DNA from: Utricularia gibba
Lineage: Eukaryota > Streptophyta > Magnoliopsida > Lamiales > Lentibulariaceae
Reading direction: 5' to 3'
Assembly (NCBI GenBank): GCA_002189035.1
Contig: NEEC01000009.1
Span: 2,232,001-2,296,000, forward strand
DNA length: 64,000 nucleotides
Within the stretch, counting starts at the first letter, position 1; every line of letters begins with the position of its first letter. The notes beneath the pieces were generated by a model. That model was not told where the DNA came from, did not search any database, and saw only the letters and a list, made by a program, of their open reading frames with translations. Position numbers and translations under genes: made by a program. This document shows, one piece after another, positions 2,971 to 55,163 of the stretch.

Positions 2971-5900
2971 ATGGCGACTTTCGCCAGGCCTGAGAATGCT
3001 TTGAAGAGAGCTGAAGGTAATTTGGCTACGATGCTTTTTCGATGATCGTATGCTTATAATGCATTGCCACTGATATTCCATAAGTCGGATTCTTCAATTT
3101 CGAATCCCTATTTTTTTTTCTTCGATTGTATTTGATTTCCTGTATTTGCATTTCCAATGCAGAGTTAATCAATGTTGGTCAGAAGCAAGAAGCACTAGAA
3201 GCACTTCATGGCTTTATCACCTCACGGAGGTACAGGGCTTGGACAAAGACTCATGAGAGAATACTCTTCAAGTTTGTGGAACTATGTGTTGAAATGAGGA
3301 GAGGCAGACATGCCAAGGATGGTCTGATACAGTATCGCAGCATATGCCAACAAGTTAATATTGCTTCCATTGAGGAAGTGATTAAGTATTTTATGCAGTT
3401 GGCTACTGAGAAGGCCGAGCAGGCTCGTAGTGAAGCTCAGGCATTAGAAGAGGCTTTAGACATTGATGACTTGGAAGCTGACAAAAGGCCTGAAGATTTG
3501 ATGTTGAGTTATGTCAGTGGAGAGAAAGGGAGGGACAGATCTGACCGTGAGCTTGTTACACCCTGGTTTAAGTTCTTGTGGGAGACATACAGGACAGTGC
3601 TGGAAATCTTGCGCAATAACTCAAGATTGGAAGCTCTTTATGCTGTAAGAATTCCTCCTGTGCTGCTCACCGTTTACATAAGTTCCTCTGATTGTTCTGG
3701 TGTTCCTTTTTGCATTTGATTATTTTTTAAACAGTGACATTGATTTTTCCATTCACACAAACTCTCAGATGACTGCACACAGAGCCTTTCAATTCTGCAA
3801 GCAATACAAGCGAACTACTGAATTCCGGAGACTGTGCGAAATAATCCGAAATCACTTGGCAAATCTCAACAAATACAGGGACCAGCGTGATAGACCTGAT
3901 CTCAGTGCTCCAGAAAGCCTGCAACTATACCTTGACACTCGATTTGAGCAACTAAAAGTCGCTACTGAGCTTGAGCTATGGCAGGTTTGCTTTTCTCAGT
4001 TATCAAAGTATTAGTTTGTTGTGGGTGTAAAATGGTATTTTTTGATTGACTATTTTGGCTTTCTTTGTTATTTCAGGAGGCTTTTCGTTCCATTGAGGAT
4101 ATATATGGACTAATGTGCATGGTTAAAAAGACACCAAAACCTCCCTTGATGGTTGTTTACTATTCGAAGCTTTTAGAGATTTTCTGGATGTCTTCTAGCA
4201 ATCTTTATCATGCGTATGCATGGTTGAAGCTTTTTACCCTGCAAAAGAGCTTCAATAAGAACCTTAATCAGAAAGACTTGCAGTTGATAGCTTCTTGTGT
4301 TGTCTTGGCTGCATTATCTGTACCTCCTTATGATCGCCTGCATGGTGCATCACATTTAGAACTTGAAAATGAGAAAGAGAGAAGCTTGAGAGTATCAAAT
4401 CTTATTGCTTTTGATGTTGAGTCCAAGCCCGAAAATAGAGAAGTGGTAACTATTTCTACATTTTCAAGCTACCTTTTTAATGCTTATCTGTTGGCTTCTG
4501 ATCTCAACATGCTCTAATTTTGTTGTCTCAGCTTTCCAGATCCTCACTTCTCTTGGACTTGGTAAGCCTACTCTGCAATTCTTTTACTTTTTTCATTTTC
4601 ATATCTTTTCTGCCTGCTGTTCTTTAACTCATATCTTTAGTGGCGATTACTTCTTCACAGCTTTTTATCTGACCCTCGAAATTGTTTGAATTTTACGTTC
4701 ATTAATAATGTTGCTTGTTGATTCTAATGTTTTCTATGGTTTCTATTTTATAGGTGGCGAAAGGGGTGCTTAACTGTGCATCTCATGAAATCAAGGATCT
4801 TTATAACATTTTAGAGCATGAAATCCCCCGCTAGATTTGGCGCTTAAAGTGCAGCCACTATTGAACAAAATTTCAACACTTGGAGGAAAGGTTGCCTCTG
4901 CATCTTCAGTTCCAGAAATACAACTCTCACGCTATGTTCCTTCCTTGGAGAAGCTTGCCACACTTCGGCTGCTGCAGCGGGTATGGTGAACCTCCTGTTA
5001 TTCCTTACTCCCTAATGTTACTCCCACTAGGTGATATTCCTCAACATCATTATCTGCATGTTTTGTTCATATATCCAGGTCTCGCAAGTGTATCAGTCCA
5101 TGACAATTGATAAGCTATCAAAGGCCGTACCATTCTTTGATTTCTCTGTGGTTGAAAAGATATCAGTGGATGCAGTCAAGAATAATTTTTTAGCCATGAA
5201 ACTGGATTATCGCATTGGATCAATGTTTTTTGGCAAGAAGGTAATTCTTCGAGATGTGTTGCTCCTTTGTTGGTTTTCAGTATAGATTGACAGCATGTAT
5301 TCTTTCTTTAAGTTGTGTAGATTGCTCACACCTCTTCCTTTGATTTCGTATTTGATCCATAGAATCTTGAGTCAGATGGCCTGCGTGATCAGCTATCTGT
5401 GTTTGCGGAATCCCTTTGCAAAGCAAGGTTGATGATAAACCCGCCCGTAAAGGGGATCTCAAAATTACGAGATGCTCTTCCCGATTTGGTTGATTTGGTG
5501 GAGAAAGAGCACAAAAGACTGCTTGCTCGCAAGTCAATAATAGAGAAACGTAAAGAAGAGCAAGAGCGTCAGCTTTTGGAGATGGTAGGGTTTTTCGATT
5601 CTCTTTTCAAACTGCTGGTTGACAGTACATGGCAGAATAAGCTCAGAAACGTTCATGGTGGTTTTTGTCAAGGAACGAGAGGAGGAAGCAAAGAGGCTGA
5701 AGTTACAAAAGATAACAGAAGAGGCAGAAAAGAAAAGACTGGCTTCAGAATTTGAGCAAATGAAAAATCAAAGAATTCTGAGGGAAATAGAAGAGCGTGA
5801 GCTTGAGGAAGCCCAGGCGCTGCTGCAGGAAGCCGAAAAACGAGGCAAAAAGAAAGGGAAGAAGCCAGTCTTTGAGGGAGTGAGTACCTAATGTTTCCAC

Positions 5901-7165
5901 GTGTTATTGCCTTGCCTCTGTACTAAATATATTTCATCATGGAACTAATAGCTGATACTTCTGTTCAGGAAAAAATATCAAAGAAAGTTCTGATGGAGCT
6001 AGCGCTAAGTGAGCAGTTAAGAGAGAAACAGGAAATGGAGAAAAAATTACAGAAACTGGGCAAGACAATGGATTACTTTGAGAGGGCAAAAAGAGAGGAG
6101 GCTGCTCCTGTTATTGAAGCTGAATTCCAGAATCGTCTAAAAGAAGAACAGGCTCTGTACGAACTCGAGAAACAGGTAAGATGCCTGAATTATGCTCCTA
6201 TTGTTCGTTTCCTCAAGATTCTATGGTGGGCATGTATCCATATTTCCCCTCAATTAAAAAACCACGTACATTTGCAGCAAGAGACTGAAATCAGCAGACA
6301 GCGCCACACTGGGGATCTCGAGGAGAAAAAAAGGCTTGCTCGAATGTTGGAGAACAAGGTTTTGATTTTTTTATTTTTTTTAGAGAACGCTGCACTTCAA
6401 AGCTTCTTGGTTCTTCCAAATCAGCGTTCTTCCTCTGCTTACATCTGTTTTCAACAGAAATTATTTGAGCAAAAGATTACCAACCGTAGAAGAGCAGAGT
6501 ACAATCGTCTCAAGGAGGAACGTGATGAGAGAATCAACCAAATGATTCAATCGCGGCATCAAGAAAGGGAAACCCGGCGGAAAATCATATTTTATCTGAG
6601 AAATGAGGATCAGAGGCAGAAAAGGCTGCGTGAAGAAGAGGAAGCGAGGAAGCGTGAAGGTACATTTTTATTTTTCTGTCGCTACCTTCCATTAATGGTG
6701 AATGTGTGACTCGAACTTCTGTTTACAACACATGAAGAGATGGAGAGGCGAAAGAAGGAGGAGGCAGAGCGGAAGGCCAAGTTAGATGAAATCGCTGAGA
6801 AGCAGAGAGCACGTGAGAGGGAGCTGGAAGAGCGGGAGAAAAAACGAAGGGAAGAAATTCTCCGACCCAGGTTTGAGCCCCCTGCCGCCACACCCCCAGT
6901 CGTGCCACCGCCCGTCTCTCCAGCCGTTGCAGCTCAGACCGCAGCAGCAGCAGCAGCACCAGCCCTAGCACGTGCAAAGTATATACCCCCCTCAAGGAAA
7001 GCCGCCGGGGCTGCCGCCACCGCCGCCGATGGTGGTGGCACCAGGATGGATGGTGATCGACCACCACCTGCCGCCGGTGACCGTGACCGGTGGCGGCCGT
7101 CGTCTTTCAGTTCCAGCGCCGGTGCCTCCAGGTCGTCTTGGTCGTCTCACAGGGACAGAAGGTGA
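2971..7165 (+). CDS. TIF3A1: Translation initiation factor eIF3 subunit A (one frame break in exon 6)
   Basis: Largest scaffold subunit of eIF3, which organises 43S preinitiation complexes on the 40S ribosome in the cytosol. Thirteen coding exons: 2971-3016, 3163-3644, 3769-3984, 4077-4445, 4532-4561, 4754-4980, 5079-5240, 5363-5584, 5673-5879, 5969-6175, 6278-6358, 6458-6659 and 6738-7165. The N-terminus carries the helical repeats ([18 protein letters not shown]), then a PCI region around residues 320-500 ending near [19 protein letters not shown] very long Glu/Arg-rich coiled coil follows, then a Pro/Ala-rich and Arg/Ser-rich tail. Full length would be 959 residues; family members are near 990. 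Exon 6 is one base short: after LEHE the run CCCCC (4825-4829) leads into TAG at residue 408, while the next frame continues [11 protein letters not shown]. One added C restores it. Everything downstream is intact, which favours a consensus error over a dead gene. Confidence 0.93.
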
Positions 7166-7878
7166 GCTTGTGGGGATTGCCCAAGTCATGCATTGTTTCG
7201 TTGCTTATAAATCTACATCCGGCGGAATATCTCTTCCGATGTTTTCTCCGGGGACTGTATTTGTTTTGTGGACACGTGGTGTCTCTTGTTTCGATGCTTC
7301 TTCTTGGTCACTGCTCAAACATGTACTGTTTTCCAGCTCTGCGGAGCACCGGCATCGCAAGCCATCCAAAAATTTTCACATACCGATTTTTTATGTTTCC
7401 AAAATGAAGATGAAAAAGACCTAAAAGTCAATCTTCACCTTTTCTCATCTTGAGGTTAGGTGCACTCGGCAGTTCAACAAGTTTATTATTCGGTTAGCGG
7501 TGCTCATTGCTCGTTAGTTTTCTTCCGTTCAGTGGAGCTGCGTATTCATTATGGAATCAGAATTAGAGGGAGTTCACCTCGGCGGTCGCCGGCCAGCTGA
7601 ACGATCTTTCGAAGCTCCAAGGCGTGGCCTCCGCAAGGGCAGCAGCAGCACACCGCCGCGCAATCCGCCGTCGTCCGTCTGGCCACTTCCGCCACCCTGC
7701 ACAGTAATCCGCGTGGTTTTCTGCAAGGGAGATTGAGATTGAAAAGACGACATGCACCGTCTACCCAGCCCTTTTATACATTTTATAATAGTTGATATTT
7801 TATACATTAATTATTAAAAAACAAACTGATTTTTACTTGGGAACTTGCCAAGGAACTCTCTTTGGCTCGGTGGGAGAA
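7166..7878. other. eIF3a 3' UTR and spacer
   Basis: The first ~280 bases are probably eIF3a 3' UTR. At 7551-7736 a GC-rich patch is open in several frames but shows no family I recognise. AT-rich DNA and the leader of the TLDc gene follow. Confidence 0.45.
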
Positions 7879-10109
7879 ATGGGAAACACGGAATCGTCGT
7901 CCGCCGATCCCCGCTTCGTCACCGCCGCCAGGTTTATACCATTTTTACCCCTTCTTCAGTGGAGATTCTAGAGACTTAGCTCCAGATGACGGTAAATTCT
8001 CTGCAGAGCATTTACGCAGAAGGAAATGGAGGATTTGAGGTCCCTATTTGCATCACTCGCTGCCCAGTCCCAGAGCAACGGGAAATACATATCTATAGAC
8101 GCTTTCAAGGTAAAATCAAATCCGTAGTCAACGTTTTGGTTCTTGAATCGCAGAAACAAAATGATTTTTCTGTTTTTGAAGGCATATATCGGCATTGATG
8201 GGCCGTTAGGGAACAGGCTATTTGCGTTGGTAACCCAAAAGCGCGGTGATCAGAAGCTTACGTTTGAAGACTTCGTAATCGCTAAGGTAAGAGTGCGAAA
8301 TTGGTTTTCCTGGTATCATAGAATTGCTAAAAATCACAGGCTTTGTTTTTGGGTAGTAGCAGAATAGCTTTGGTTTTTGTTTTCAACAGTGGAATACTGG
8401 AAATCGATGTCTTTGATTTCTTTTACAAACTATGTGGTACGTTTAGTGTAACTTTTAAGGTAGAATTAACGTTACCATGTTGTAGGCTCTAAGAAAGTTG
8501 AATCTCTCCCGTGCGCCTTCTCTAGGGATTTCCCAATGAAATCGACTCGCATACCCCATAAAATAGGAAGGGAAACGAAGAAGGAGAAGATTAGTGGGCG
8601 TTTGATTTCATGAGCTTCAACTGTAGAGAAATAGTGTAGCAATGGTTCAAAAATCTGTTCTGGGTTGCTACTTATCAAAATTTGTGCAGATTCTTATGTA
8701 TCTTGTAGGCCTTGTATTGGTGTACTTTTCCTTGGCTGTATGAATGACCACCTGCGCTTTGTTGTCGGTGCTTCAGGGGACTTATGAGAAGGGAACGAAG
8801 GATGAAATTGAAGAGTTCATCTACCAAGTAGCAGATATCTCTGGCGACGGGGAAGTTTCGAGGTTCAGCTTTTTTTGTCATGCAAAGACCTAACTTTTTG
8901 GTTACCAAAGTTTTTTTTTTCAACAAGTAGCAGCCATTTCTCTAAGCTTTTTGGTTTGGAATAGTCATCTTTATACTACTTGTACATCCATAGGTCTGAT
9001 TTTGAGGCCATTCTATCTTCCATGTTTGCCAATCTGTTCAACCAATCCCATCCTGAGCCTGAAAGTGGAACTCCACCGGAAATTATCGAGGCTTTCATGA
9101 ATGCTGCGAATTTCACTGATGATAGCCTGTCTGCAGCAGAATTTTGGAGATGGTGTACTCTAATCCCAGCTGTCCAAAGGTATCTCAGTAGCTTGTTGAC
9201 GCCCTCCGATTCAGGTATTGCCTCTGGTTTTAGGTCATTGTATTGGTTATGCACCATTGTTGATTGGTTCCCCTTGTAGGATCACATATTCCTCGGCTGC
9301 AGTACACTGAATGTGTTGACCCTGGTCAGGTTTTGCTGACAAAAGAATATGCTTGGCTTATCGGAGGAGCCTTGCACTCAAGTGGACTGCAAGAATGGAG
9401 GCTTCAGTACCACAGCCTCGTTCATGGCCTCAGCTTCAACACCTTTTTAGGACATATGTCGTAAGTCTTGCTTGAAGTCTTTACATGTCGTTCCGTCTGT
9501 GCGGGAAATTTAGCCAGCAATCAAACATCAAAATGCAACTGCAGAGACGATGGGCCTACAGTATTCATCATCAAAGATAGTGAAGGTTACATCTATGGAG
9601 GCTATGGTTCTCAGCCGTGGGACAGGCACTCGGATTTCTATGGGGATTTGAGGTCGTTCCTGTTTCAGCTCCGCCCTACAGCTTCCATTTTCCGACCCAC
9701 CGGAGCCAACCATAACTTGCAATGGGTACTTCTCTGGACCTCCTTACACACTTGGCATGCCACTGATCATGGCTTAGTCATCTGATGCTTTTTCTGCAAT
9801 CAGTGTGCTGTGAATTTCAGCTCAGAGAGCATTCCAAATGGAATTGGTTTTGGTGGAAGAGTGAACCATTTTGGACTGTTCCTTTCGGCGAACTTCGACA
9901 CGGGTCATACATTTCCCTGCGTTACCTTCGGTAGCCCATGCCTCTCCAAGAACAACCAAATCACCCCACAAGTCATAGAATGCTGGAGGGTGATGCAGCC
10001 GAAAGCTGATCAAAATAAATCAGAAGCCCTGAAAGGTACTGTGTTAGAAAGGTTCCAGGAAGAAAGGAAAATGCTTAATCTTGTAGGAATTGCAAATTCC
10101 AGTGAATGA
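7879..10109 (+). CDS. TLDc-domain protein with EF-hand-like segment and predicted N-myristoylation
   Basis: Plant TLDc-domain protein of 411 residues; TLDc proteins are linked to oxidative-stress protection and, in animals, to V-ATPase regulation. The plant role is not established from this sequence. Eight exons, all GT-AG and in phase: 7879-7931, 8007-8109, 8182-8286, 8777-8862, 8994-9214, 9280-9460, 9545-9725 and 9804-10109. The protein starts MGNTESS, an N-myristoylation pattern with Gly2 and a small residue at position 6, suggesting membrane anchoring. An EF-hand-like loop DISGDGEVSRSDFE lies near residues 108-121. The TLDc fold spans roughly 190-400, with LLTKEYAWLIGGAL, the glycine-rich IYGGYGSQPW and a C-terminal FGLFLSANFD. 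The start gives the myristoylation motif and a length typical of the family. Confidence 0.9.
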
Positions 10110-10259
10110 TTTTGGGGAGGTTTTGTTTTTGTTTCATACTTCAATGAACCATGCCGAATGAAACCTTTGATATAGAGGAAAATTGTCTGAAACGATTCGA
10201 AGAGAAAATAGGGCAAACCGATTTGATACAGAGTATCGGCGGATTGTTCCATCGCTGGT

Positions 10260-10573
10260 GGAATGTTAACGGCTACTTGGACTTCATTGAGTGCAACCCC
10301 AGGAAGATCCTTCATCCCGAGCGACTTGAGCAAATCGAGGGTTTCCTGCTTCACCATGATGCCATCGACTCGGGTGGCGGATTCATCGGATGAGAGAAAT
10401 CCCATGAACGGGGTCCCTGAATTCGCTTCATCGGATGTCTGGAGATCTTGTTCCGGGGAGCTTTCGAGGCGATGACGGTGGCTTCCTCAAGCATCTTCTT
10501 GTTCGTGTCGATAGCGACATTTTCGAGTGTTCCCGGAAAATTTCTTCGCCGTGTTCCTTAGCACACGTCCCAT
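10260..10573 (-). pseudogene. Decayed 40S ribosomal protein eS17 (RPS17) gene
   Basis: Three blocks in different frames read as eS17. From the ATG at 10573 comes MGRV followed by a KK-rich stretch that loses similarity after about 14 codons. Near 10526-10411 another frame reads DTNKKMLEEATVIASKAPRN and KISRHPMKRIQ, against the family's TNKK-LEE-RNKI-LMKRIQ series. From 10405 a third frame reads DESATRVDGIMVKQETLD, then LLKSLGMKDLPGVAL. Segments of about 15 and 17-20 codons are missing between blocks, and the normal stop is lost. A working eS17 is about 140 residues, so no functional protein is possible. It has no poly-A tail on the 3' side and keeps a promoter-like upstream region, so it looks like a decayed gene copy. 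Plant eS17 genes often lack coding introns, so a retrocopy cannot be fully excluded. Confidence 0.78.
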
Positions 10574-10658
10574 CGTCGCGGCGGGCAACAGAGATTTTCG
10601 TGACCAGTCCCGCTACTTTCAAACCTTCATTATGGTGTCGTTTTCGGCCCGGATTTCT

Positions 10659-10720
10659 GGCCCATTGGGCCAAAGTGGATAAATAACGCCCAATTCTAAT
10701 TCCATCCGAATTAGGGTTTC
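10659..10720 (-). promoter_or_regulatory. Relic ribosomal-protein promoter upstream of the eS17 pseudogene
   Basis: Read towards the pseudogene, this segment has a telo-box-like AAACCCTAA (reverse of 10711-10719), a TATA-like TTATTTAT (10679-10686) and a palindromic GGCCCAATGGGCC site II pair (10659-10671). That combination is typical of plant ribosomal protein genes. No plus-strand gene starts next to it, so it most probably belongs to the eS17 relic. Confidence 0.55.
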
Positions 10721-10760
10721 AGCGTTTCACCGGAGACTACGATTTCTTTGATCGGCTGTA

Positions 10761-10786
10761 TTTTTTTTTTTTTTTTTTTTTTTTTT
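10761..10786. repeat. Poly-T tract, 26 bases
   Basis: Uninterrupted run of 26 T. It could be a retrotransposed minus-strand poly-A tail or simple slippage. The adjacent ~60 bases (10787-10850) have a faint tRNA A-box/B-box look but do not fold as a tRNA. Confidence 0.9.
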
Positions 10787-15314: not shown

Positions 15315-16757
15315 TCAGTTAGGCAAACTACAGGTCCTTCGCATCCCTTTCAACACCCCGTCCCCCTACTCTCTTTGCATTGCATCTGAGCTTGTGCTTT
15401 CTCTCGTGCTTCCTCATTTGCCTGTCATCAAAGAGGCTGCATTGATTCCCTTGATCACATGAACATGAACTTACCGACCTAATTACTTGTGTATAACTTG
15501 CCTGCTGCTTCCTTTGCCTCTCGATCTCAGCCTGTTGCAGAATTTAAGATTTGTTCAGATTCAGATTCTTGATGGATGAAGCTGTGTATAGTGAGTGTAT
15601 GTGTTATGAAAACTTGATGATGTTTACCAGACGCTGTTTCATGTGAGCGTTCTCCTCTTTCAGCTGGTTCAATTCTGCTTCAAGCTCCACGGTGTAAGCC
15701 TGCAACACAATGGAAACCTAGAATCAACCAACCACTCAGAAGACCAACACCCAGTCCATTTTATTCCAACCTGTTTCCTAGCCCTGGATCGGGCTGCAGA
15801 CTCCCTGTTCTTGATCATTCTTCTCTGTCTCCTCTCCACTACTTTCTCCACTGGCCCATCCAGAGTTCTCTTTCTTCCTCCCCTGCCGCTCAACTCAGCT
15901 CCATACTGATTGTTCACGCATTCCGGCGACATTGGGCTCGCCGGTGACTCCATTCGCACCGCTCCCAATCCGTTCCCATAGCTGCCGCAGTAATTAGCAG
16001 CAGCAGCTGGTGTCTGTGGCTGAGCCTGAGGGTAGACTACGTCACTCTTCATTCCTCCTGTGAAACCATGGGGAGGATGCACCTCCACTACAAGGCCGTG
16101 GTATCCAACATTCTTGGCGGCCCTCGCGGCGGGGATCATCCCCGGGGTAACATACGTAGTTCCCACTGGTGCGATGCCCTGATACATACCATTATACTGC
16201 ACCACCGGCGGCGCCGGTGAGGCGGCAGCGGCAGTGTAGTTCTGCTCTCTTACAACTCCGGCGCGCACCAGAAAATCTTCCAGTGTCATCTCCCCAAACG
16301 TGGGCTGTTCCTGAGCTGCATTAGGATTCTGAAACTGGTGACCATTCTCGTGACCTCCGTTCTGGAGATCATTACAATGAATTTCCGACCACACTTGGTC
16401 AACGGTTTTCCGACAGAGGGTCTCCGGCAGGCTGAGAGATCCTTGCCTGGCCAGGCTCCCTGACTCCTTCCCTACCACTCCCTTATCACCCAACAAGCCC
16501 AATTCCGCCACCGCGTCTCCATCAGCGGCTCCGGCCGCCGCCTGAGCTTGATTCTCCTCCGCCGTCCATATACTATTGATGAACTCATCCATGTTCATGG
16601 ACCCAAAATTCTTCCCACTCTCACACAGTGTATGCTGAAGCTCGTCCATGGTCAGCGAGTATATCGACGACTGTCTCCCCAACGGCTGCGCCACCGCCGT
16701 CGTCGATTGTTGCTCTGCCTCCTGACTCAACCCATTGCCCTGATCTCCAGTAGCCAT
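15315..16757 (-). CDS. ABI5: ABI5-type group A bZIP transcription factor (frame break in last exon)
   Basis: Nuclear bZIP that binds ACGT (ABRE) elements in abscisic-acid responses of seeds and seedlings. Exon 1 (16757-15771) carries the phosphorylated conserved regions: QSSIYSLTMDELQHTLCES with KNFGSMNMDEF, SLPETLCRKTVDQVWSEI, and PTFGEMTLEDFLVRAGVV. The basic region follows, RRMIKNRESAARSRARKQ. Exon 2 (15699-15628) begins the Leu zipper and exon 3 (15531-15502) ends RQRKQQ. The next intron either uses a GC donor (15501-15500) at the position conserved in this family, or an in-frame GT donor 27 bases on, adding nine residues. In the last exon (15421-15315) the frame as read stops at 15350. 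One added C in the CCCCC run at 15362-15366 instead reads on to MRRTCSLPN, the expected conserved C-terminus. Predicted size is 398 residues (407 with the other donor). Confidence 0.9.
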
Positions 16758-17076: not shown

Positions 17077-17099
17077 TTCGTCTCTGAATCCGGGTCGGG

Positions 17100-25547: not shown

Positions 25548-25549
<2 letters not shown>

Positions 25550-25558
25550 GTGGATGTG

Positions 25559-29020: not shown

Positions 29021-30697
<1,677 letters not shown>

Positions 30698-31332: not shown

Positions 31333-34300
31333 TCATGTTTCCGTCCGCGTTCCTCCGCGAACGGGTTGTGTTGCTGACGGCGTTGATCTGATCACCAGCC
31401 TCAACGAATCCATGATGTTGGCAAACGAAGGTCGTTTCCACGGCTCGCTGTCATTTCAAACCACACAAATAAGGGGAGGTTGCCAAGGTGCCTGCTTTTC
31501 ATCAGAAAAGAGTGTTCGCTCACTTGGCCCAGCAGGATGAGATTAGATCTGCAACTCGAGGGTTAATGCCAGGTGGGATTTGAAGTCTTTTCCCGTAGAA
31601 TCCGACTGCTGCAACGACCTGCACAGATGATGAATTTGACAATGTGTTTGATATTCGTCTGCGTTGGAGATGCGCATGGAGCACCAACCTGTGGGGGTTC
31701 AGGTTACCCCATGGTCGCTCCAAGGTGACCATCTCCCATAGGATCACACCGAAACTGTACACATCAGATTTTTCATTTGATGGCTCATCACGAAGAACTT
31801 CAGGAGCCATCCACTCAGGCTATGACAAGGTACAAAGATCTACTTCATGCTCTAAATAAGCAGCAAAATTTCATGCAATGACGCAAAACAAATGAACTTA
31901 CAGTTCCTGCAGCTGATTTGGATGAAAGGAATGTGTTTGCTTTTAGACGGGAAAGGCCAAAGTCACAAACCTGAAAAGCAGTAGTGATTTCAGTGTAGGA
32001 ACCGAAATATGCATACTGAAGGTCGTCACCCTTGTCCTCACCTTCACTGTATACTTTTTATCAACAAGAAGATTTGGAGACTTCAAGTCTCTATGAACAA
32101 TTGGAGGGTTATGTTTATGAAGACAGTTCATACCCTTTGCCTAAACAGCAATCATCATGCAGAATATCAGTTACCCGGATGGGTTTGCTCTGACATGCTA
32201 GATGCTGAAGAAAGAGCTTGAGTCCATACCACATCCAAAGCCATATTCAATCGTCGCTTCTCATCCAAAACTTCGTGTGCTCCGGGCTTATGCAAAAGCC
32301 TATAGAGACTACCCCTAAACCAGAGAGCTTATTACAGGGTAGGACATGCCAAATGAGGAATATGAACCAGCATGTATAAGAATATGAAGAATTTGGATTG
32401 ATAGAGTGTACCTTGAAAGGTATTCTGTTACTATGGACAAGTTGGGTGGCTCTGTAACAGCTCCCATGAAAAGCACTATATTTGGATGGCGCAACCTTTT
32501 CATGATTGCAACCTATTTTAACCACGTATAAGAGACCTGTTTCCAGAGAACTGTAAAAGGCCAGTCAAGAATTCAATAAATGGGCCAACCTCTTGTGTGA
32601 ATTCTCTGACGCGCTCAGCATGGAAATCTTGTTCCATCAGAATCTTTACGGCCACATCCTGCAGGATAACTACTATTTCAATCTAGAGGTAACGAACTTG
32701 GGATGTGAAAAAAAGCTTTTTTTCACATCTTTGAGACACGAGAAAGGATGTAACTTACACAACCATTCCATTCAGCAAGATGCACTGTACCAAAAGAGCC
32801 TGAGAAAGTCAGGCAGCCAAGGCATCAGTTGAACTGACAAGAAAAGAAGGGGAAAATGTTCCAGAAATTGGAAATACCTGCACCAACTCTGTCCTTTAGA
32901 ACAAGATCTTTCCATGGAATAGTTAGTTCTTGAATGTCAAAAGCCAGTTCTCCAGTTGCTTTGGGAGAAAACAAACGATGTTCTTTACTGAACTTCGTTT
33001 CCTCATTAGCATTTCCTCTGCGGTCAACACCATTTAGTGATTGGGCTTCTTTATGATCAAATGAAGAGATAACATTCGAGGGAATCACTCCTTTTCGGAC
33101 ATCTGTGGAATGACATGTCCTCCAGAGCATTAGATGTTTCTGAAACCAATTATGACTCGAGATGGACCTTATCCAAGACACAAGAATAAAAAGCTATACG
33201 GGTCATCATCTTTCAACATATACCTTGTTCCGAGGGGTAGAAGGTGATAAAGCTAAATTTTTTGCAGGAGTAATGCAAAGACTATTCACCAAATTAATAG
33301 TGGTAAAAAAAAGAATCAGTTTAGATCATATTCACCTGATACAGAACCATCAAAAATATTGGTAAGAGACTGAAGGTCCTCAAAATACTTTTTAGCAACC
33401 GCACTGAAATCAACTGGAGGTTTCATTTGTTTCAATCGAGGAAAGCACAGTGGTGAAGAAATGGATATTGTTAAAGGACCATTCAGCAAGGAATCAGGTG
33501 CACATAAGTATCCAGGTCTCCCAATGAGATCAACAACATGCTCCCTGTAATGCCAGTATACAAAATTTAGAGAACATATCGATTCCATTAATGGTAATGA
33601 AGAGACATTCCATAAGACCTGAGATACAAGTTGAATCATTTATAGAAAAATACCTGTCTGTATCAAAATGAACAATACACGAGGAAGCATCCTCCCGAGT
33701 ACAATAATTACATCCTTTAGCAATTCGACAAGGTAATCCAATCAAGTCAGCAAAAACCTAGAAACAAAGACAAACCAACAAGAACTATAAAAGGATCACC
33801 TCCATGGATACAAAAAGAATAAGGAATGGTCTGGAATTTGATTGGTAATATGAATCACAGACGGGAGCCATAGCATTCAGGTAGTAGAGGGTGGCTACCC
33901 AATTTACTTCTAAAACTGTGTATATCAAGCAACTTTCTATGTCAACTGGCTCGCTACGGCAGAATAGAGTCTCTTTTCCAACTACAAAGTAAAAGAAATA
34001 CATGTGAGCATACTTTAAAAAGCAATGCGCGGTGTCGGCATGATCCAGCATGCAAACTGCCAATTGGAAGGACAATCGAATGCAAGCTTTCCTTTAGACC
34101 GTCACTGCACTCTTTCCACATCGTGCACAAAGCATCTTCTCCTTCTGAAGCTGAACCGCTTGAGTAGCGAGGATGAATGCTATAAGACAACGATTTTATG
34201 GAAGACATTACATAACTAACATCCAATAACTCACCCCAGGTGATTGCAAACAAGCTTTGCAAGCTGTTCAACAACTTCTTCCTTCAAGATGATCGGGGAA

Positions 34301-35436
34301 AACAAAGTAATGATCTTATCGTGCAGCTCCCTCAAAATGGGATCCGCTTGGAGATCCACAGATATCACTTCAGCTGAGAGCATAGTTGCAGGACTCACAG
34401 TTCTTAATGATTCCAGCGATGGGATCCTGCCACTTTCATGAAGATCAGAGCAAACAGCCCATACATAAGGATCCATACCATGGATAGAATAGAACCCATC
34501 TGAAATCTTGTCAAAGTATGAAAGACAACCCGTAACCTGAATAGTGCAAAACAAAAATTAGCATATGAATATAATATATTCAAGCATTCATATGTGCACA
34601 TGGAACTACACTTTGACTTGGGAAACTAAACAACACCCAATACAGGCTCATTCTCGCTTATCACAAATCGAATGAACACGTAAGATCGGCAAAATAGTAG
34701 AATCCATTTCGGAGGCCCAACCAACACACTGAAACCAGGTCAATGTCGTTGACAGCTACGACGTGAACCATACGGGCCATTGATTCATGATATAATACGA
34801 AATCACTCTCCAAATACCCAACTTTTCACCGGTTCCACTCTTCTACAAACACGAACGGCACATATTTAGCGAAATCCAATTTCATACCCAGAATCTATGA
34901 GAAATGGCCTCCCCTGCCACCGACGAATTCGAAGGATCTTTAACTTGGAGTTCCAAGAAATTTGGATCATTAGCGCACGCGGCCTCCGAGTAAAGGCGAA
35001 GTGCTAAAGCCAACTGCAGTTGATAACTCTCCTCCGCCTGCAGCGCCCAGCTTTTCGAACAAGATGAACCTCTCCCACCCCCACCGGACAACTCCACCCC
35101 CTTATCCCTCACTTCACCTCCCCCATCACTATAAGGACCGATACCCACATCAGTATTCGACAGCGTAGACACAAAATACTCCCCGGAAATGGAACTTTCG
35201 CCATAACTGCTCCCACTCGACTGCCGCTGCAGCCCTAATGCACCAGGGAACCCCCCAGACGGTACCCTGCTTTGCGGCGGATCAATTGTATCCCAATCAA
35301 GCGACGCCCCACTATGGTGCCTCGATCCAACTCCATCCACTGGCTCAAACTCGTTGGAATACGGCTGCTGATTCAACGGGTCTTCCGGAACTTGGCCCAG
35401 CAACGTGTAATTCGATCGCCGAGGAGGAAGCTCCAT
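31333..35436 (-). CDS. CTR1: CTR1, Raf-like MAPKKK repressor of ethylene signalling (frame break in exon 13)
   Basis: Raf-like kinase that binds ethylene receptors at the ER and keeps EIN2 phosphorylated without ethylene. Fifteen exons run from 35436 to 31333: 35436-34888, 34536-34235, 34179-34014, 33757-33654, 33544-33336, 33102-32878, 32799-32759, 32658-32590, 32512-32412, 32314-32230, 32140-32042, 31970-31902, 31819-31689, 31618-31524, 31447-31333. N-terminal marks are [13 protein letters not shown] and [19 protein letters not shown], then the EDR1/CTR1-type regulatory domain ([21 protein letters not shown]). The kinase occupies about 505-770, with [37 protein letters not shown] and [11 protein letters not shown]. 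Length is 786 (Arabidopsis 821). Exon 13 is one base short: five C (plus strand 31693-31697) where NLNP-x-Q-VVAAVGF needs six. The ATG at 35490 would add 18 residues; 35436 matches known CTR1. Confidence 0.94.
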
Positions 35437-36371
35437 CACAATTCCCCGTCGTCCTCCCTTTAGACGCGCTCGGCGGATTCCGGCCGCCAAGTTCGCATCC
35501 TGACGGATAAGTTTCTTCTAACATTCTTTGAACGTAGACACATATGCCGAAAACGCATACCGCAACATCACGACACGACTTCGGAGACGTTTTGCTATTT
35601 TTACGTAAACTGTTCCGTAGTCCGTACCACCCGAACAATTAGACCCTGCCCGAATTCGATGAATCGGGTCGGGTTGATATAAATAATTTTATAGAATTTA
35701 TTTATTTCGATAAAATCACCTTTCCATCCCTTTCTTAAACAGTGGTGTATGACGTGTAAATAAAATGGTTTTCTAAGAATTATTATTTCAAGAAAAAAGA
35801 CATTTTTTTAAAATAATAATAAAAACAAAGCATCGTTGTTAGCCCTTCATTAAAAAGATTCCATATAAAAAACGTCCACTGCGACGTATCAGTTTTGGAG
35901 CTTCTTTGCCACGTAGGATTTTTCAAATTCGGTTTCAAAACTAAATTTTGAGAAAATAACCAAATTTTATAATATTAATGAATATTGATTGATAGATTCA
36001 AAAATCAAAAAAACTTTGATAAAAATAATGATAGATTAAAATTTTGGTCGAAAGTTCGGAATTTCGTATTTATTGTAACAAAAGTCATTAGAGTATTTTG
36101 AGCATGTGGATGGGTAAGAAAAATAATATAGTGAGTGGGATGTATGGGATAAGATTAGAAATGATAACTATGGTTCCTTATCCTTGATGGTGATATTAAT
36201 TAATTAATTAATTTAAAATTAATTTATTAATTATCATTTTTCTTTTTTCCGCCTTCTTTTTCCTTTAAAATTCGGTTTGCCGTGAGACTAGACGGGCGGA
36301 CAATCGGCACCCAAAGGCGAACTTTCTTTTGTTCTCTCTTTCCGGCACCGCGCCCTAAGTAGTGCGTGTTT
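35437..36371. other. Shared upstream region of CTR1 and the F-box gene
   Basis: 935 bases between divergent start codons. It holds the CTR1 leader (GC-rich to about 35670), then AT-rich DNA and a TTAATTAATTAATTAA stretch near 36195-36215. No gene supported. Confidence 0.5.
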
Positions 36372-44016: not shown

Positions 44017-44063
44017 TTTTCTCCCGAAACAACAACTGCGTGAAATTGTAGATGAAGAACGAG

Positions 44064-47057: not shown

Positions 47058-47909
47058 TTCGAAATGTTTCGCTTCCGGACAAACGGTTAGCCCAATTCGG
47101 CGTGTCCCTGCCTCCCTGCATAGCCGTCTTTCTTGATATCCGCAAGACGGGGTGGCCTTTTTTTGGAAGAATAATCAAAACTTTTAATTAAATCGAAAAA
47201 TTAATTTAATTTATTTAAATATTATTTTTTAAAAAATATTAAAACATAGTTAAATATCATTAAACTCAATTCAAATTATCATAATTCAATATAAATTCAT
47301 AATTAAACTGAATAATTAGTATAGCCATAATTGAATATTCAATTTCCTAAAATTTAGAAAAAAATTGATGATTTGTTCAATTGATTGAATTGAATATTAT
47401 AAAAAATGACTAAATAATATTCGATTGTATTACAAATTTAAGCATATTTGATGAAATATATGAAAAAAATGATTATCTTAAAAAAAAATTTACTAATATT
47501 TTACATAAAGTATGAGGATGATCATTTTTTTAAATAATTCGTTTTTTTATGACAAAATGTCCAAGACAAGAGTGATCTTAGGCTTTTCCCATATCCTTTG
47601 CACTAAGCACTACCAAAAAGGCACTGGAATAGCAACTTTTTGATGTCATCTCCATCCCTGCACATCGCTTGATGTCATGGTGATCATGATCGCAACCAGT
47701 GTGGCCAATGCATCATCATTCAGGAGGTTTCCATGTTTGGGAAGCCGGAGATCGCTGCTTTCAGGTCGCAATTGACTTTATCAGAATCCCCAGCAGCTGC
47801 GCTTGGAAGGATTGTGAGACAATCCATCATCATGTAAAGAGAAATGGGCGACGACCAAATGCCACTCCCTCTTGCTTTCCTGCGACGTCAATCCTGGAAA
47901 TAAATTTCA
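47058..47909. other. Divergent promoter region, OMR1 and pectinesterase
   Basis: 853 bases between divergent start codons. 47170-47560 is extremely AT-rich; 47600-47900 is mixed sequence and probably holds the pectinesterase promoter. No gene seen. Confidence 0.5.
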
Positions 47910-49499
47910 ATGATGTTCAGACTCAGAACACCGATGGCTGCATCTTCTAAAGCAAACGCTTTCTTGTGGCTTACTGCTTCCACAATTCTTGTTTTCTCTT
48001 GTGTGGTATCCCAGCAAACCGCTGCCGGAATTGAGGTTTTGGGAGCTGTGAGGAAGATTGGGAGGGAGGGGGGTTTCTTTTCTAAAGGCCATCATCGCCG
48101 TCATCATCGGAGAAGCTCCTGTGACGGAGGCCTGAGGAACTCCAGCCTCGTCGGAGTTTACAATGTTAGCGTCGTGCTGACGGTGGATGCGAAGGGGTGC
48201 GGGGATTTCAGCAGCGTTCAAAGCGCAGTGGATGCCGTTGCTGACTTCAGTGGCTCATGGACGCTCATTGCGGTTGATTATGGCACGTATAGGTACAATT
48301 CCGGCATGGGTCTGTGTCTGTGTGCAAACCAAATCGTGTGATTTTCCTTTCTTTTTTTTTCTTAAATCCACTTTCAGGGAAAAGGTGGTGGTGAATCCGA
48401 ACAAGACGAAGCTTATACTGCAGGGGCAGGGGTATCCCAACACCGCCGTGTCCTGGAACGACACCGCGAATTCAACCGGAGGGACAGGCCGTTCGGCAAC
48501 TTTCGCGGTGTTTGCTAAAGATTTCGTAGCATACAACATTAGTTTCATGGTACGCATATCTCTGCATAGTCCTCACAGCTTTTATCCACAAACTGAACCT
48601 CATGATACATATACATCGGGAAAAAGAACACCGCTCCGGCGCCGGACCCTGGAGTCAACGGCGGCCAGGCGATAGCCCTGAAAGTGTCCGGCGACCATTC
48701 TGCCTTCTACGGCTGCGGAGTGTATGGCTCCCAGGACACCCTTAATGATGATCATGGTCGCCACTATTATAGCCAGTGCTTCATTCAGGGCTCCATAGAC
48801 TTCATTTTCGGAAATGGGAGATCAATATTTGAGGTAACGTGCACTGTTTGGTTATTTTCAACAAGATTGGAAGCAAATTTGTCCGAAAGTAAAATTATCT
48901 ACTTTCTTTTCACCTTCAGAACTGCACGATCAACTCCACCGCCAAGCAAAGCTCTTCATGGGGAGTCACCGGCAGCATCGCCGCCCAAGGCCGCCCCTCG
49001 CCGGATCCGACAACCGGCTTCTCCTTCGTGAACTGCCGAGTCGGAGGCACCGGGAAAGTATGGCTCGGCCGAGCATGGGGTAACTATTCGACGGTTATTT
49101 TCGCTAGAACCTACATGGAGGATGTCGTCGCAAGCGATGGATGGAACGACATGGACACCAGCACCAGAGACCTGTTCGTGTCTGAACAAAACACCTTACA
49201 CATCACCACCCACACACGCTCTGAAAGCTTCTTCTTACACTTGATGATCCTGTTCCTTTTGTTCATCTCGTGATAGAACCGTTACCTTCGGAGAATACCA
49301 ATGTTCCGGTCCGGGATCGAACATGGCCGGTCGGGTCGGGTATGCCAAGGAAATGACATCCAGTGAAGTAGCTCAATATCTCGATGTCTCCTTCATCGAC
49401 GGCGAGGAGTGGCTCGTCCCCAAATCCGGCCCCAGAAATGATCTGCAGACCGTGGCGGCGATCGGAAGAAATCCATCTACGCCGCTTGATTCCATGTAA
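47910..49499 (+). CDS. Pectin methylesterase without pro-domain
   Basis: Secreted enzyme that removes methyl esters from cell-wall homogalacturonan. Exons 47910-48292, 48378-48549, 48627-48833, 48920-49173 and 49277-49499 give 412 residues. The N-terminus has a signal peptide ([18 protein letters not shown]) and a His/Arg-rich stretch, but no PMEI pro-region, so it is a type II enzyme of the PME8/15/68 kind. Active-site motifs are present: [11 protein letters not shown] (Gln and first Asp), SIDFIFGNG (second Asp) and VWLGRAW (Arg). Starts at 47910, 47913 and 47934 are possible; the last places the signal peptide closest to the N-terminus. The donor of intron 4 (CT|GTTCGT) is weak but is the only nearby one giving TRD[14 protein letters not shown]. 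A second GT six bases on is in phase too. Confidence 0.86.
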
Positions 49500-50924
49500 T
49501 AAACAAACATATAGTGTCTTAACTGATACTCAGTAATACAAAAATATCTAAATATGTATTTGTTATGTCATATCCAATAGAAAATATTATGTGATTAAAA
49601 TAAAAAGTTTATTTGATACATATTTTTTCTATATACATATTTAAAATAATATTATGTTATATATATATATATATGTATTATATTTATTTAAAATAAATAA
49701 TTTATAATTTAAATTTCATTTTTTAGTTGAATTTTGAAATACCCATCTTATAATATTTTATAAAATACTCGTGAAATCAGCTTACCAAATATACAATATT
49801 ATCAACAATAAGGATAGCTAAACACTAACACCAATCTCACAATCACCCCATGAAATATTGTTATTAGAATCTGATATCTCTAAATACTAAAAAAATATTG
49901 AAATATAATTTCATTATAATTACAATTAATCAATTAGACATATATCCATTATATCTACCGTACAAATCAATGATTTCAGGGTTGTGATTTTACAGGTTAC
50001 CATTTCAGATAGGAAGCAATTCTTTTTTTTTTTTGTAAAAGTTTGGATAATGATAAATATCTAAAACTTCAGGATAAATTTGATTTAGGTTCTTCCAATT
50101 TGTAGAAAAGTGGGAGATATTATGTAAATATCTTAGACCTGTTTACGTCATTTCTGGAATAAAAGATGATGTGGATATGATTCACACTGTTTTGTCTTAA
50201 TTAAAGACGGAAGCAGGAGGAGAGAAGCGTAATTTAAATAATTTAATTCTCATTTTTAATTATTTGATTCATGGAAAATATCTGCGGCGTGGAATTTCCC
50301 GTTGGCTTCAGAGAAACCTTGGGCGTCAAGAATTTGATGTTTTATGTTGGAAAAACAATTTCGGATAATGACATTTTTTTTAAAAAAAAAGACAGAATGG
50401 AAAAAGTCGGCGGATAAGGAGGAATATTTACGGAAAATATCCTGGAAATTTGTAATGAGAAAATTCGGGAAATAATTGTAAAATGGATTAATTGATTACG
50501 AACGTGGCAGTTTTTGATTGGTTAATGCTTCACATGGACGGGAATTAGAGAAAATAATATTAATATTACTTAAGGGATAATAATTAATTAATATCAATCA
50601 TTATATTATCCGGATAATTTATTTTTTCAGGAAAAAAAAAATAAAAATTGGGAGAGAAAAATCTCATCCGTTGCCGTCAAACCGAGCTTTTCTTTTTTGC
50701 TTTTGTTGTCGCGTTTCGGAATTTTCCTGCGGAAGCGGTGGCGTCAGCGTAAGCGGGGAGGGTGGATTGCTAAAGTATTCAGAGCGCTGGCGTGGAACCG
50801 CGTCATCGCACCCTGGCTTGGTTGACGAACGCACCCCGCAAATTCTAAAGGTAAAAAGAGAATACCTTGGGCGTGTTCCAAGCTGTTCCCCAACTCCCAC
50901 TGATTTCATACTTCTCCACGACTG
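49500..50924. other. AT-rich intergenic region
   Basis: Very AT-rich to about 50640, with a TA repeat near 49657-49676. A GC-richer promoter region for the next gene follows. No coding frame supported. Confidence 0.5.
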
Positions 50925-50932
50925 TATATAAG
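50925..50932 (+). promoter_or_regulatory. TATA box of the CHY/RING gene
   Basis: TATATAAG, 113 bases upstream of the ATG at 51045. Strong match to the plant TATA consensus. Confidence 0.6.
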
Positions 50933-51044
50933 CCCGGAGAACGTGCTCCACCTTTATCGCTCAACGCAAACAGTGTGTGTATTCGCTTGTATTGGATTGA
51001 ATTACACTTCTTCGTGTTCTGATTCGAGGAAAACCCAGAAAGAA

Positions 51045-52802
51045 ATGGGCTCTCTGGTGGAGAAATACGGGTATGTAGAGTGTGAGCTGCGTTTTTTCTT
51101 CCCAAAATCGGGTCTTTTCTTGAACTGGGGTTGTTGATTTTGTGGGGAAAATCTTGATTTTTCAGATGCCTACATTATCAGAGGAGGTGCAGGATTGTAG
51201 CACCCTGCTGCAATGAAATATTTGATTGCAGACACTGCCACAATGATGCCAAGGTTTGTCGTTGTCCTTTAAATTGATGAAAAACTGTAAAGATTCACTC
51301 TAACTTCATCTTGTAATACTTGAACAGAATTCTTTAACTGTGGATCCACTCTATAGGCATGACCTCCCTCGTCATGAAATTGAAAAGGTGAGCTTAATAT
51401 CTCATTCTTCCCTGTGATTTCTCATCGTTGATAAAATGATGATGGTGTGCTTATAAGAGACTGTGTTTGTTTCTGCCTTCAGATAATTTGCTCCCTGTGC
51501 AACACTGAACAAGATGTGAGTTCCAAGCTTTATATCACTGATGATTCTGAGAAGATTTTTTATGATATTGCTCTCTAAAGCTGTGATCTTCTTTCCCAAA
51601 TTTCAGGTGCAACAGATGTGCATCAATTGTGGAGTTTGCATGGGGAAGTACTATTGCTCGAAATGCAAGTTCTTCGATGATGATGTAAGATTCGTTCCAT
51701 TTCAGTAAGAATACCTTTAGCTCTTTTCTTGTTGTAAATCAATGCGATTCTCAATGCCAGGTTTCAAAGGATCAATATCACTGTGACAAATGCGGAATCT
51801 GCAGGTTCTTACCATTCTCTCTACGATATTTTCTGTGCTGATCTACTCTCTTGAGGCTATCAGCTATGAATCTAATATGCTCTTATTTTCTGTTTTATAG
51901 AAAGGGTGGAAAAGAAAACTTCTTCCACTGTGATCGATGCGGTAAGCCTTGCCATCAATAGATACTGATTAATCCCTTCGCTGAGTGATGCCAAAACTCT
52001 TCAGCTAACGTGCCACCACCCTTTGTGTCTCAGAATGCTGCTACTCGATCGCATTGAAGGATTCCCACGTGTGTATAGAGAGAGCTCTGCATCACAATTG
52101 TCCAGTGTGCTTCGAGGTAACTCATCGCAACACAGTGGGGTGGGATGTTCAATCTCTGGCTCCCTAGGCTTCACCTTCTCTTTTTTGATGCAGTATCTCT
52201 TTGATACAATGAGCGACGTCACAGTTCTATCATGCGGCCATACAATTCATCTTGATTGCCTCAAGGACATGGAGCACCATTTCCAGTAAGAAGCTTTCCC
52301 CTGCCGGTTACCAAAAATTGGTCAGAGCTTCTGTCAGAAATCACTTACACTTATGCTTGCAGGTATGCTTGTCCGGTGTGCTCGAAGTCATATTGCGACA
52401 TGACTCACGTCTGGGAGAAGCTCGACCAGGAGGTATATGAACGCCACCGTTTAAAACCATTACCTTAAACCATACTTATCCTCAGCACAGCTGCTGACGC
52501 CCCTGGTTATGTGTATTGGTGCTGCAGGTTGCCTCAACACCTATGCCACAGATGTATCAGAACAAAATGGTGAGAACCCATTTCCCCATTTCCACCACAC
52601 TACCTGCAAATACCCATTTTTTCGAGAAAAAACCACTGACTGGTGTTGCTGCTTGAAGGTGTGGATTCTTTGCAACGACTGTGGAGAAACAAGTGAAGTC
52701 AGTTTTCACTTCGTTGCTCACAAGTGCCTCCACTGCAACTCCTACAATACGAAGCAGACGAGGGGCGGCGGCACCGGGGGTCACAGAACATGCTCCTCCT
52801 GA
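51045..52802 (+). CDS. MIEL1: CHY zinc-finger/RING E3 ubiquitin ligase, MIEL1-type
   Basis: RING E3 ligase; Arabidopsis MIEL1 degrades MYB30 and MYB96, linking it to defence and ABA/cuticle responses, and animal relatives (PIRH2) target p53. Twelve short exons: 51045-51070, 51166-51253, 51328-51387, 51483-51515, 51607-51684, 51761-51804, 51901-51941, 52034-52116, 52194-52285, 52363-52432, 52528-52569 and 52659-52802. They join in phase to 266 residues (family about 267). Order: CHY finger near 9-75 ([27 protein letters not shown]), CTCHY finger ([37 protein letters not shown]), RING-H2 near 143-186 ([28 protein letters not shown]), then a C-terminal zinc ribbon ([17 protein letters not shown]). 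All metal-binding Cys/His appear present. Confidence 0.95.
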
Positions 52803-53296
52803 TCAACAAACAATGCATGTTAGAAATTGGTGGTTGTTCCCAGGCTTGTGTTCATCCAGTTGATGAAGAGGAAGTGAAGAGGAAGTCTGCTTTTGTAGCT
52901 GTCCAGTTATGTTAGCGTGTACGAGTGTAAAGTTTCCCATTATAGCACAGAAACAAGTATAATTTTGGAAGGAAAAATCTAATTGATCTCAATGTCGTTT
53001 TCTCGTATTTTTATTTAATATTATGAAATAATGATAATACTGGGATTTATTTAACAAATTGTTCCTGGCTGGATAAACCATATCCTCCTCCTGTGGTTGG
53101 CTGGAAACCACAGTTCGGCTTCTGGTGCGAATTACTTCGTCGGCTTTAGAAAGAGGTACTTACTTTATGAAGCTTTGCATTCATTCGCCATTGGGCGGGT
53201 GGTTTCTTTATGATGCCTGCAAGGTGTTCGGGAAAATGTCGCAGCGAAAGAACAAGGATTTATAAGTAACCTTTTGCGCAGTGATTGGGAGCAGCC
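52803..53296. other. Spacer before the thioredoxin-like gene
   Basis: 3' UTR of the E3 ligase gene and a short promoter for the next gene. Nothing else seen. Confidence 0.45.
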
Positions 53297-53808
53297 ATGG
53301 AGGAGAGTGGAACTGCAGATCCGGTGAAAGTTTCCAAGGGTACTCTGATAACCGCCGCCGACGACGAAAATCTCAGGGAACTGTTTCGCCGAATCAAGAA
53401 TTCGAAAAAGACTGTAAGCAATTACCAATGAATTTAGCTGATCAAAAAAACATATTCTCTCTGTTGATGATGTTTTACACCGACTCCGATTGCAGACGGT
53501 TATCAACTATGGCGCATCTTGGTATGCTGTGTTTCTTCCTGTTCCTGGTTCTTCCCTGTCACCAACTTACCGTCTCCTGAATGGGCAGGTGCCGCGTCTG
53601 CAGCCAAATCCTGCCGGTTTTCCAGCGCCTGAGCGGCAGGTTTCCGGAGCTGGAATTCGTGTACGCCGACATCGACGAGTGCCCGGAGACGACACAGCAC
53701 ATTCGGTACACTCCCACTTTTCACTTCTACAGAGATGGAGAAAGGGTCGACGAGATGCTCGGCGCCGGAGAGCAACGCCTCCATGACCGCCTATGGCTGC
53801 ATTCCTGA
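53297..53808 (+). CDS. TRXL3-3: Thioredoxin-like 3-3 protein
   Basis: Small cytosolic thioredoxin-fold protein, 120 residues. Exons 53297-53413, 53496-53521 and 53589-53808. Exon 2 is only 26 bases and the active site is split by intron 2: NYGASW joins CRVCSQILPVF, giving Trp48-Cys49-Arg-Val-Cys52 instead of the usual WCGPC. Other fold residues are present: FVYADIDECPE and IRYTPTFHFYRDGE (cis-proline Pro in YTPT), ending GAGEQRLHDRLW. The changed dipeptide between the cysteines should alter redox potential. Converges with SAM synthase; the two stop codons are only 183 bases apart. Confidence 0.92.
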
Positions 53809-53991
53809 TTAGACTCATTTGCAGCATGCACTCTTGAAATTTGAAACCTCAACTTTCGTTTCGACTTCCGATAAATGAACAAATGGTTGGGAACCAAAAG
53901 AAGGGAGCAAGTTAAATGAATAATGGAGTGAAAAGGCAAAAAAGAATCAAGACCGCCGGCTAAGCTTATTCAGTCGTCTGCGTTTTGATGA

Positions 53992-55163
53992 TCAAGCTTT
54001 GGGCTTGAGGACCTTCACCTTCTCCCAAGTGAAATCGGGATCCTCTCGGCCGAAGTGGCCGTATGCGGCGGTCTTTTGGTACCTGAAGTTGCCTCCTCTT
54101 TTCAAGTCAAGGTTGATGGCAATCATTCCTGGCCTGAAGTCGAAGTTCTCCTTGATCAGAGCAAGGATGTCCTTGTCTGGGATCTTCCCTGTTTTGTAAG
54201 TATCGACGAACACAGAGAGGGGTTCGGCTACACCGATAGCATAGGACACCTGCACGATGCAACGGCGAGCAAGGCCGGAAGCCACAACACTCTTTGCTGC
54301 TTGCCTGACTATGTATGCACCGCTCCTGTCCACCTTGGTGGGGTCTTTGCCGGAGAAAGCGCCCCACCGTGAGCACCCCAGCCACCGTATGTGTCGATGA
54401 TGATTTTCCGACCAGTGAGACCGGCATCTCCATGTGGACCGCCAATGACAAAACGGCCTGATGGGTTGAGATGGAATATAGTTTTCTCATCAAGGTACTT
54501 TGCAGGAATCACTGGCTTGATAACATGCTCCTTAAGATCAGCAGCAATCTTATCGTTCTTTACGCTTTCTTCATGCTGTGTGGAGATGAGAACTGTGTGG
54601 ACTCTTAGAGGGACCATGGCTCCATTCTCGTTCTTGTACTCAACAGTGACTTGTGTCTTACCATCAGGTCGCAACCAAGGGCAAGTCTTGTTCTTTCGTG
54701 CTTCGGTGAGCTTGGCCCCTAGCTTGGTGGCAAGCACATGAGTGAGTGGCATCAGTTCCGGTGTCTCATCAGTGGCATAACCAAACATGTGCCCTTGATC
54801 ACCGGCTCCGATTTCCTCAGGTTTCTTGGTGAGATGGCCATGGACCCCTTGAGCAATGTCAGGACTCTGCTGTTCAATGTTTACAAGGACCTTGCAATTC
54901 TCGGCGTCAAGACCGACGTCAGGCGATGTAAAACCAATGCCTCTGCATGTATCCCTCACGATCTTCTCATAATTCAACTTCGCCTTTGTTGTGATCTCGC
55001 CGAATACCATTACCATATTTGTCTTCGTGCATGTCTCACAAGCTACTTTGCTCTCTGGATCTTGTTCTAGACAAGCATCGAGGATGGCATCAGAGACTTG
55101 ATCACAGAGCTTGTCCGGATGCCCTTCATTGACTGATTCCGATGTGAAAAGAAAGGTATCCAT
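53992..55163 (-). CDS. SAMS: S-adenosylmethionine synthase (single frame break)
   Basis: Makes S-adenosylmethionine from methionine and ATP in the cytosol; the product feeds methylation, polyamines and ethylene. The coding region is intronless, as usual for plant SAMS. Marks: [16 protein letters not shown] (ATP/methionine site), [15 protein letters not shown] (signature), [24 protein letters not shown]. The frame from 55163 breaks at the CCCC on the plus strand (54362-54365): after GGWGAHGG it reads ALSPAKTPP and stops, while the next frame carries on [16 protein letters not shown] to the proper C-terminus. One added base in the run gives [19 protein letters not shown] and 390 residues, the exact family length. 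No other damage exists, so a consensus error is more likely than a dead gene. Confidence 0.94.

What the first reader, a model, noticed from the sequence alone, without database searches (positions are those of the whole stretch)
4825..54365. Four independent frame breaks share one signature: one G/C lost from a 4-5 base G/C run
eIF3a, ABI5, CTR1 and SAMS all show a -1 change, all in G/C homopolymers, on both gene orientations, in genes under strong constraint. Real pseudogenes would also carry stops, larger gaps and substitutions (compare eS17 here). The pattern fits homopolymer under-calling by a long-read consensus. Annotation derived from this assembly will mis-predict many genes.
Basis: inference. 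Interest (0 to 1): 0.75.

Follow-up and report, generated by a model that had tools for sequence, protein, structure and literature searches.

The report
Long-read assembly errors mimicking broken genes
Four plant genes in this stretch look broken most likely because the long-read assembly dropped one letter from short runs of G or C; the same fault shows up elsewhere in the genome, including where the same DNA was assembled twice, so it is almost certainly a data error and not biology.

Summary
eIF3a, CTR1 and SAMS each lose one base in a G/C run, checked against outside proteins. ABI5 is likely but weaker: C-terminal, with no homologue covering the site. The runs as found are C5, C5, G4 and G5.

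The artefact reading is supported by a test inside the assembly. A 31.5-kb contig (C236) repeats part of C505, the contig holding this window. Over 25,992 aligned columns the copies differ by 2 substitutions and 49 indels. G/C runs of 4-5 differ in 13 of 118 cases, A/T runs of 4-5 in 6 of 332. C505-side rates predict about 5 G/C breaks in the window's ~19 kb of coding sequence; 4 are seen. Another SAMS copy on C505 lacks a G that its C236 duplicate keeps. Outside the window, SAMS and HSP70 copies show seven more clean breaks, all -1 and all G/C. No second eIF3a copy was found, so a real null is implausible.

Contig sizes match the published Utricularia gibba PacBio/HGAP assembly, and leftover G/C-homopolymer indels are documented for HGAP/Quiver. 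Known kind of artefact, low novelty. No reads were available, so the four sites themselves are inferred, not proven.

The parts
2971..7165 (+). eIF3a gene (about 13 exons), otherwise open; only copy found in the assembly
   Evidence: exon frames, match to eIF3a structures, genome search finds only this place
4825..4829 (+). C5 run at which the eIF3a frame changes (-1)
   Evidence: frames; one residue missing at the junction against 3j8b
15327..16757 (-). ABI5-like group A bZIP gene
   Evidence: reading frames; no near copy in the assembly
15362..15366 (-). G5 run at which the ABI5 C-terminal frame changes (-1), the weakest of the four
   Evidence: frames; motif by recall only
31336..35437 (-). 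CTR1 Raf-like kinase gene
   Evidence: frames; match to Arabidopsis CTR1 3ppz/3p86; paralogue on C411
31693..31697 (-). C5 run next to a splice donor at which the CTR1 frame changes (-1)
53992..55164 (-). S-adenosylmethionine synthase gene; one of 8 distinct copies found in the assembly (plus a duplicate on C236)
   Evidence: dN/dS against the C411 copy 0.024 before and 0.039 after the break
54362..54365 (-). G4 run at which the SAMS frame changes (-1)
10283..10568 (-). eS17 pseudogene: the contrast case with several lesions
   Evidence: two frame changes, a gap of about 20 residues, 50 of 94 aligned residues identical to Arabidopsis eS17

Best explanation
The four frame breaks are residual consensus errors of a long-read-only assembly: one base under-called in a short G or C run. 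The genes are intact in the plant. Shown: the assembly disagrees with itself at G/C runs where the same DNA was assembled twice, at a rate that accounts for the number seen in the window. Inferred: that the four particular sites are such errors, and that the plant is Utricularia gibba sequenced with PacBio and assembled with HGAP/Quiver.
For: C236 versus C505: 25,992 columns, 2 substitutions, 49 indels, 41 of one base. Runs of 4-5: G/C 13 of 118 differ, A/T 6 of 332, Fisher p = 1e-4. The C505-side rate predicts about 4.9 G/C breaks in ~19 kb of window coding sequence; 4 observed. The SAMS copy at C505:1097010 is broken by a missing G that its C236 duplicate has. Seven more clean breaks in about 28 kb of SAMS and HSP70 coding sequence, all -1, all G/C. 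No second eIF3a copy was found. SAMS is under strong constraint on both sides of its break. C242 and C30 repeat main contigs with 8 indels against 1 substitution over 3.0 kb. Contig C451 is 6,822,880 bases, matching Unitig_8 at 6.8 Mb in PMC8333044; HGAP, N50 3.4 Mb in PMC5793159. HGAP3/Quiver left 205 indels, nearly all in G or C homopolymers, in a bacterial genome (PMC4832174).
Against: No reads and no second consensus cover the four sites themselves. Which of two copies is wrong is known only where a reading frame decides, as in SAMS. The small contig C236 probably has lower coverage, so the raw pair difference overstates the main-contig rate; only the C505-lacking events (15) were used for the prediction, and some of those could be insertions in C236. 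ABI5 has no independent homologue at its site.
Confidence: 0.96

Rival explanations
1. Real null mutations: the four genes are recent pseudogenes, as might follow whole-genome duplication and gene loss in a shrinking genome.
For: SAMS and CTR1 do have other copies. Genuine lesions exist in this genome: eS17 and the shared HSP70 frameshift.
Against: eIF3a was found only once and is essential by general knowledge. No stops, larger gaps or relaxed constraint are seen. All breaks are -1 in G/C runs. The assembly shows the same kind of change between two copies of the same DNA.
Confidence: 0.02
2. Mixed case: eIF3a, CTR1 and SAMS are errors, but the ABI5 C-terminal frame change is real and gives a shortened or altered tail.
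For: The site is near the C-terminus, where constraint is weaker; the frame as given ends soon after.
Against: Same signature as the other three: a G5 run and a -1 change. The shifted frame ends in a sequence like the group A bZIP C-terminal motif (by recall).
Confidence: 0.08
3. Real polymorphism: C236 and C505 are two haplotypes and their differences are allelic, so the internal test does not measure error.
For: C236 carries a 5.56-kb block that C505 lacks, so the two are not simply the same molecule.
Against: 2 substitutions against 49 indels in 26 kb is far from any natural spectrum. The diverged C241/C304 pair shows the opposite ratio, 16 to 2.
Confidence: 0.01

Closest known systems
Residual G/C homopolymer indels in HGAP/Quiver PacBio assemblies (for example PMC4832174)
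   Same: Single-base indels, concentrated in G or C runs, left after Quiver polishing, breaking reading frames
   Different: Here seen in a plant nuclear assembly and measured from redundant contigs instead of Illumina polishing; A/T runs of 5 and more are affected as well
Gene-fragmenting errors in long-read bacterial assemblies (Kastor, PMC12007338)
   Same: Homopolymer indels create false pseudogenes in otherwise sound assemblies
   Different: The assembly profiled there was Nanopore, of a small genome, with A/T runs most affected
True unitary or duplicated pseudogenes
   Same: Broken frame in a recognisable gene
   Different: Here a single -1 change with no other damage, in genes under strong constraint

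Membership tests
Residual long-read homopolymer consensus error | Single-base indel located in a homopolymer | tested here: met
Residual long-read homopolymer consensus error | Rate rises with run length and is higher in G/C than in A/T runs of equal length | tested here: met
   G/C 4-5 at 13/118 against A/T 4-5 at 6/332
Residual long-read homopolymer consensus error | Indels far exceed substitutions between two consensus sequences of the same DNA | tested here: met
   57 indels against 3 substitutions over 29 kb in three pairs
Residual long-read homopolymer consensus error | Absent from an independent consensus of the same site | tested here: inconclusive
   Met for the SAMS copy at C505:1097010 against C236; no second consensus was found for the four window sites
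Residual long-read homopolymer consensus error | Contradicted by short reads or raw-read pileup | not testable with these tools
   no reads held
Pseudogene | Several independent lesions: stops, gaps, frame changes | tested here: not met
   SAMS aligned end to end: one -1, no stops; eIF3a and CTR1 exon frames otherwise open. The eS17 control does meet it
Pseudogene | Relaxed constraint after inactivation | tested here: not met
   SAMS dN/dS 0.024 before and 0.039 after the break; a very recent inactivation would not show, and the other genes were not tested

The most novel reading that the evidence does not exclude
The short runs are real and genome-wide: the plant has a true G/C-run deletion tendency in conserved genes and tolerates it, for example by correction at the RNA or translation level. 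The evidence all but excludes this, because the same DNA assembled twice disagrees with itself, but no read has been inspected.
Probability: 0.01. Interest if true: 0.85.

Novelty: not a real feature. Interest (0 to 1): 0.2.

Why it matters
It warns users of this assembly. In the genes sampled, clean frame errors run at about one per 4-5 kb of coding sequence, so many gene models are likely to be cut short, split or called pseudogenes, and analyses of gene loss after genome duplication may be biased. It also shows that an assembly's own redundant contigs can measure its consensus error without any reads. Not every oddity is explained this way: the published truncation of DCL3 in this species looks real here too, since no upstream part was seen at the candidate locus.

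Tried and rejected
Frame-shift calls in L030/L042, L031/L038/L046 and L033/L035 that arise where my aligner misread short introns were not counted; the one in-frame stop in L033/L035 lies inside such a stretch. The -1 call in L029 lies at an exon end and is ambiguous, so it was not counted. The HSP70 frameshift shared by C304:2236k and C241 is not in a G/C homopolymer (CTTTG against CATG) and is a real lesion, not an error. I tested whether the published truncated DCL3 could be such an artefact and rejected it: at the locus with RNase III domains but no dicer-dimer domain (C213), the sequence upstream holds an RS-type splicing-factor gene on the other strand. C412 (L078) did not give a usable C-terminus to test ABI5. 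The paper describing the assembly is not held. Three early alignment scripts gave nothing because of my option and strand settings and were redone.

Full report
The window is part of contig C505 (3,452,500 bases) of a plant assembly of 100.09 Mb in 516 contigs. Contig C451 is 6,822,880 bases, matching the 6.8-Mb Unitig_8 of Utricularia gibba (PMC8333044), and several contigs are close to the published N50 of 3.4 Mb for its HGAP assembly from 88x PacBio reads (PMC5793159). I take it to be that assembly; this is an inference from sizes, not from a name.

Observation. All four sites are as described. In eIF3a the frame changes at a C5 run (4825-4829), in CTR1 at a C5 run next to a splice donor (31693-31697, minus strand), in SAMS at a G4 run (54362-54365, minus), in ABI5 at a G5 run near the end of the gene (15362-15366, minus). 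When the two frames of each gene are joined and compared with proteins of known structure, Arabidopsis CTR1, a SAM synthase (6vcw) and eIF3a (3j8b) align through the break with exactly one residue missing at the junction. The C411 paralogue of CTR1 keeps the exon end in frame. ABI5 could not be checked this way; its case rests on the shifted frame giving a tail like the group A bZIP motif, which is recall. Reading by eye the frames of the window's other recognisable genes (methyltransferase, TLD protein, AGC kinase, trihelix, aldolase, HD-Zip, threonine deaminase, pectin methylesterase, MYB) I saw no further break.

Chance. G/C runs of 4 or more make up about 2.2% of roughly 19 kb of coding sequence in the window, with exon bounds set by eye. 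Four of four events in such runs by uniform placement has probability about 2e-7. Natural deletions also favour runs, so this alone does not prove error.

The direct test. A SAMS search showed two near-identical places, C236:10072-11234 and C505:1097010-1098171, differing in length by one. I fetched all of C236 and its counterpart. Over 25,992 aligned columns there are 2 substitutions and 49 indel events, 41 of one base. Per run, the chance of differing rises with length: in G/C runs about 86 per 1000 at length 4 and 160 per 1000 at length 5; in A/T runs about 8 and 41 per 1000 (single-base events). Counting every run with a gap on one side, G/C runs of 4-5 differ in 13 of 118 cases and A/T runs of 4-5 in 6 of 332 (Fisher p = 1e-4). 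About 25 indels per substitution is not a natural divergence spectrum. The diverged pair C241/C304 shows the usual pattern, 16 substitutions to 2 indels over 3.75 kb. Two further small contigs, C242 and C30, also match main contigs, with 6 and 2 indels against 1 and 0 substitutions over 1.5 kb each.

From the direct test to the window. Events in which C505 is the shorter copy number 15 in 26 kb, of which 7 are single G/C bases. Applying these run-length-specific rates to the window's coding runs predicts about 4.9 G/C breaks and 7.8 in all; 4 are seen, all G/C. The numbers are small, and the direction of each difference is known only where a frame decides. In one case it does: the SAMS copy at C505:1097010 is out of frame by a missing G in a G run, while its C236 duplicate is in frame.

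Spread. A frame-aware alignment of SAMS and HSP70 copies across the genome, about 28 kb of coding sequence outside the window, found seven clean breaks, all -1 and all at G or C: the second SAMS copy on C505, HSP70 copies on C451 and C496, two in one copy on C255, and one in each of two copies on C1. In some of these the lost letter could be either G or C by the codon alone, and for the C1 pair the placement rests on comparison with sister copies. There were no clean +1 changes and no in-frame stops outside misread introns.

Contrast cases. eS17 in this window has two frame changes, a gap of about 20 residues and 50 of 94 aligned residues identical to Arabidopsis. The HSP70 copies C304:2236k and C241, which differ from each other by substitutions, share a frameshift that is not in a G/C homopolymer and includes a substitution relative to the intact neighbour copy. 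Real lesions in this genome therefore look different from the four breaks.

Constraint and copy number. eIF3a gives hits only at this locus, and a real null would be lethal by general knowledge. Window SAMS against its C411 copy has dN/dS 0.024 before and 0.039 after the break.

Known kind. HGAP3 assembly with repeated Quiver polishing of a bacterial genome still needed 205 indel corrections from Illumina reads, nearly all in G or C homopolymers (PMC4832174). The pattern here is the same kind of error.

A side test. U. gibba has been reported to have a truncated DCL3, checked by those authors with transcripts and 5' RACE (PMC8333044). I asked whether this could be the same artefact. The locus with RNase III domains but no dicer-dimer domain is on C213. 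The fetched sequence upstream holds an RS-type splicing-factor gene on the other strand, with no helicase exons seen among its ORFs. The truncation therefore appears real and is not explained by base loss.

Noticed in passing
L079 (G000:C213:2753101-2763100): The DCL3 candidate has RNase III domains but no dicer-dimer or helicase part seen upstream; an RS-type zinc-knuckle splicing factor on the other strand lies there instead. This agrees with the published truncation of U. gibba DCL3.
   Followed up: partly
G000:C236 (31,510 bases), L049-L052: Carries a 5.56-kb block absent from the otherwise near-identical stretch of C505; could be a haplotype difference or an assembly join.
   Followed up: no
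L062 (C242), L065 (C30), C236: All three small contigs compared in this way repeat main-contig DNA almost exactly. Many of the small contigs may be redundant and inflate gene counts.
   Followed up: partly
L027 (C241) and L028 (C304:2236266-2237462): Two diverged HSP70 copies share a frameshift outside any G/C homopolymer, probably a genuine pseudogene lesion.
   Followed up: yes
window 31336-55164 and C411:585063-598788: SAMS and CTR1 both have their nearest copies close together on C411, a likely homeologous block from a genome duplication.
   Followed up: partly
window 10283-10568 (-): Decayed copy of ribosomal protein eS17 with several lesions.
   Followed up: yes
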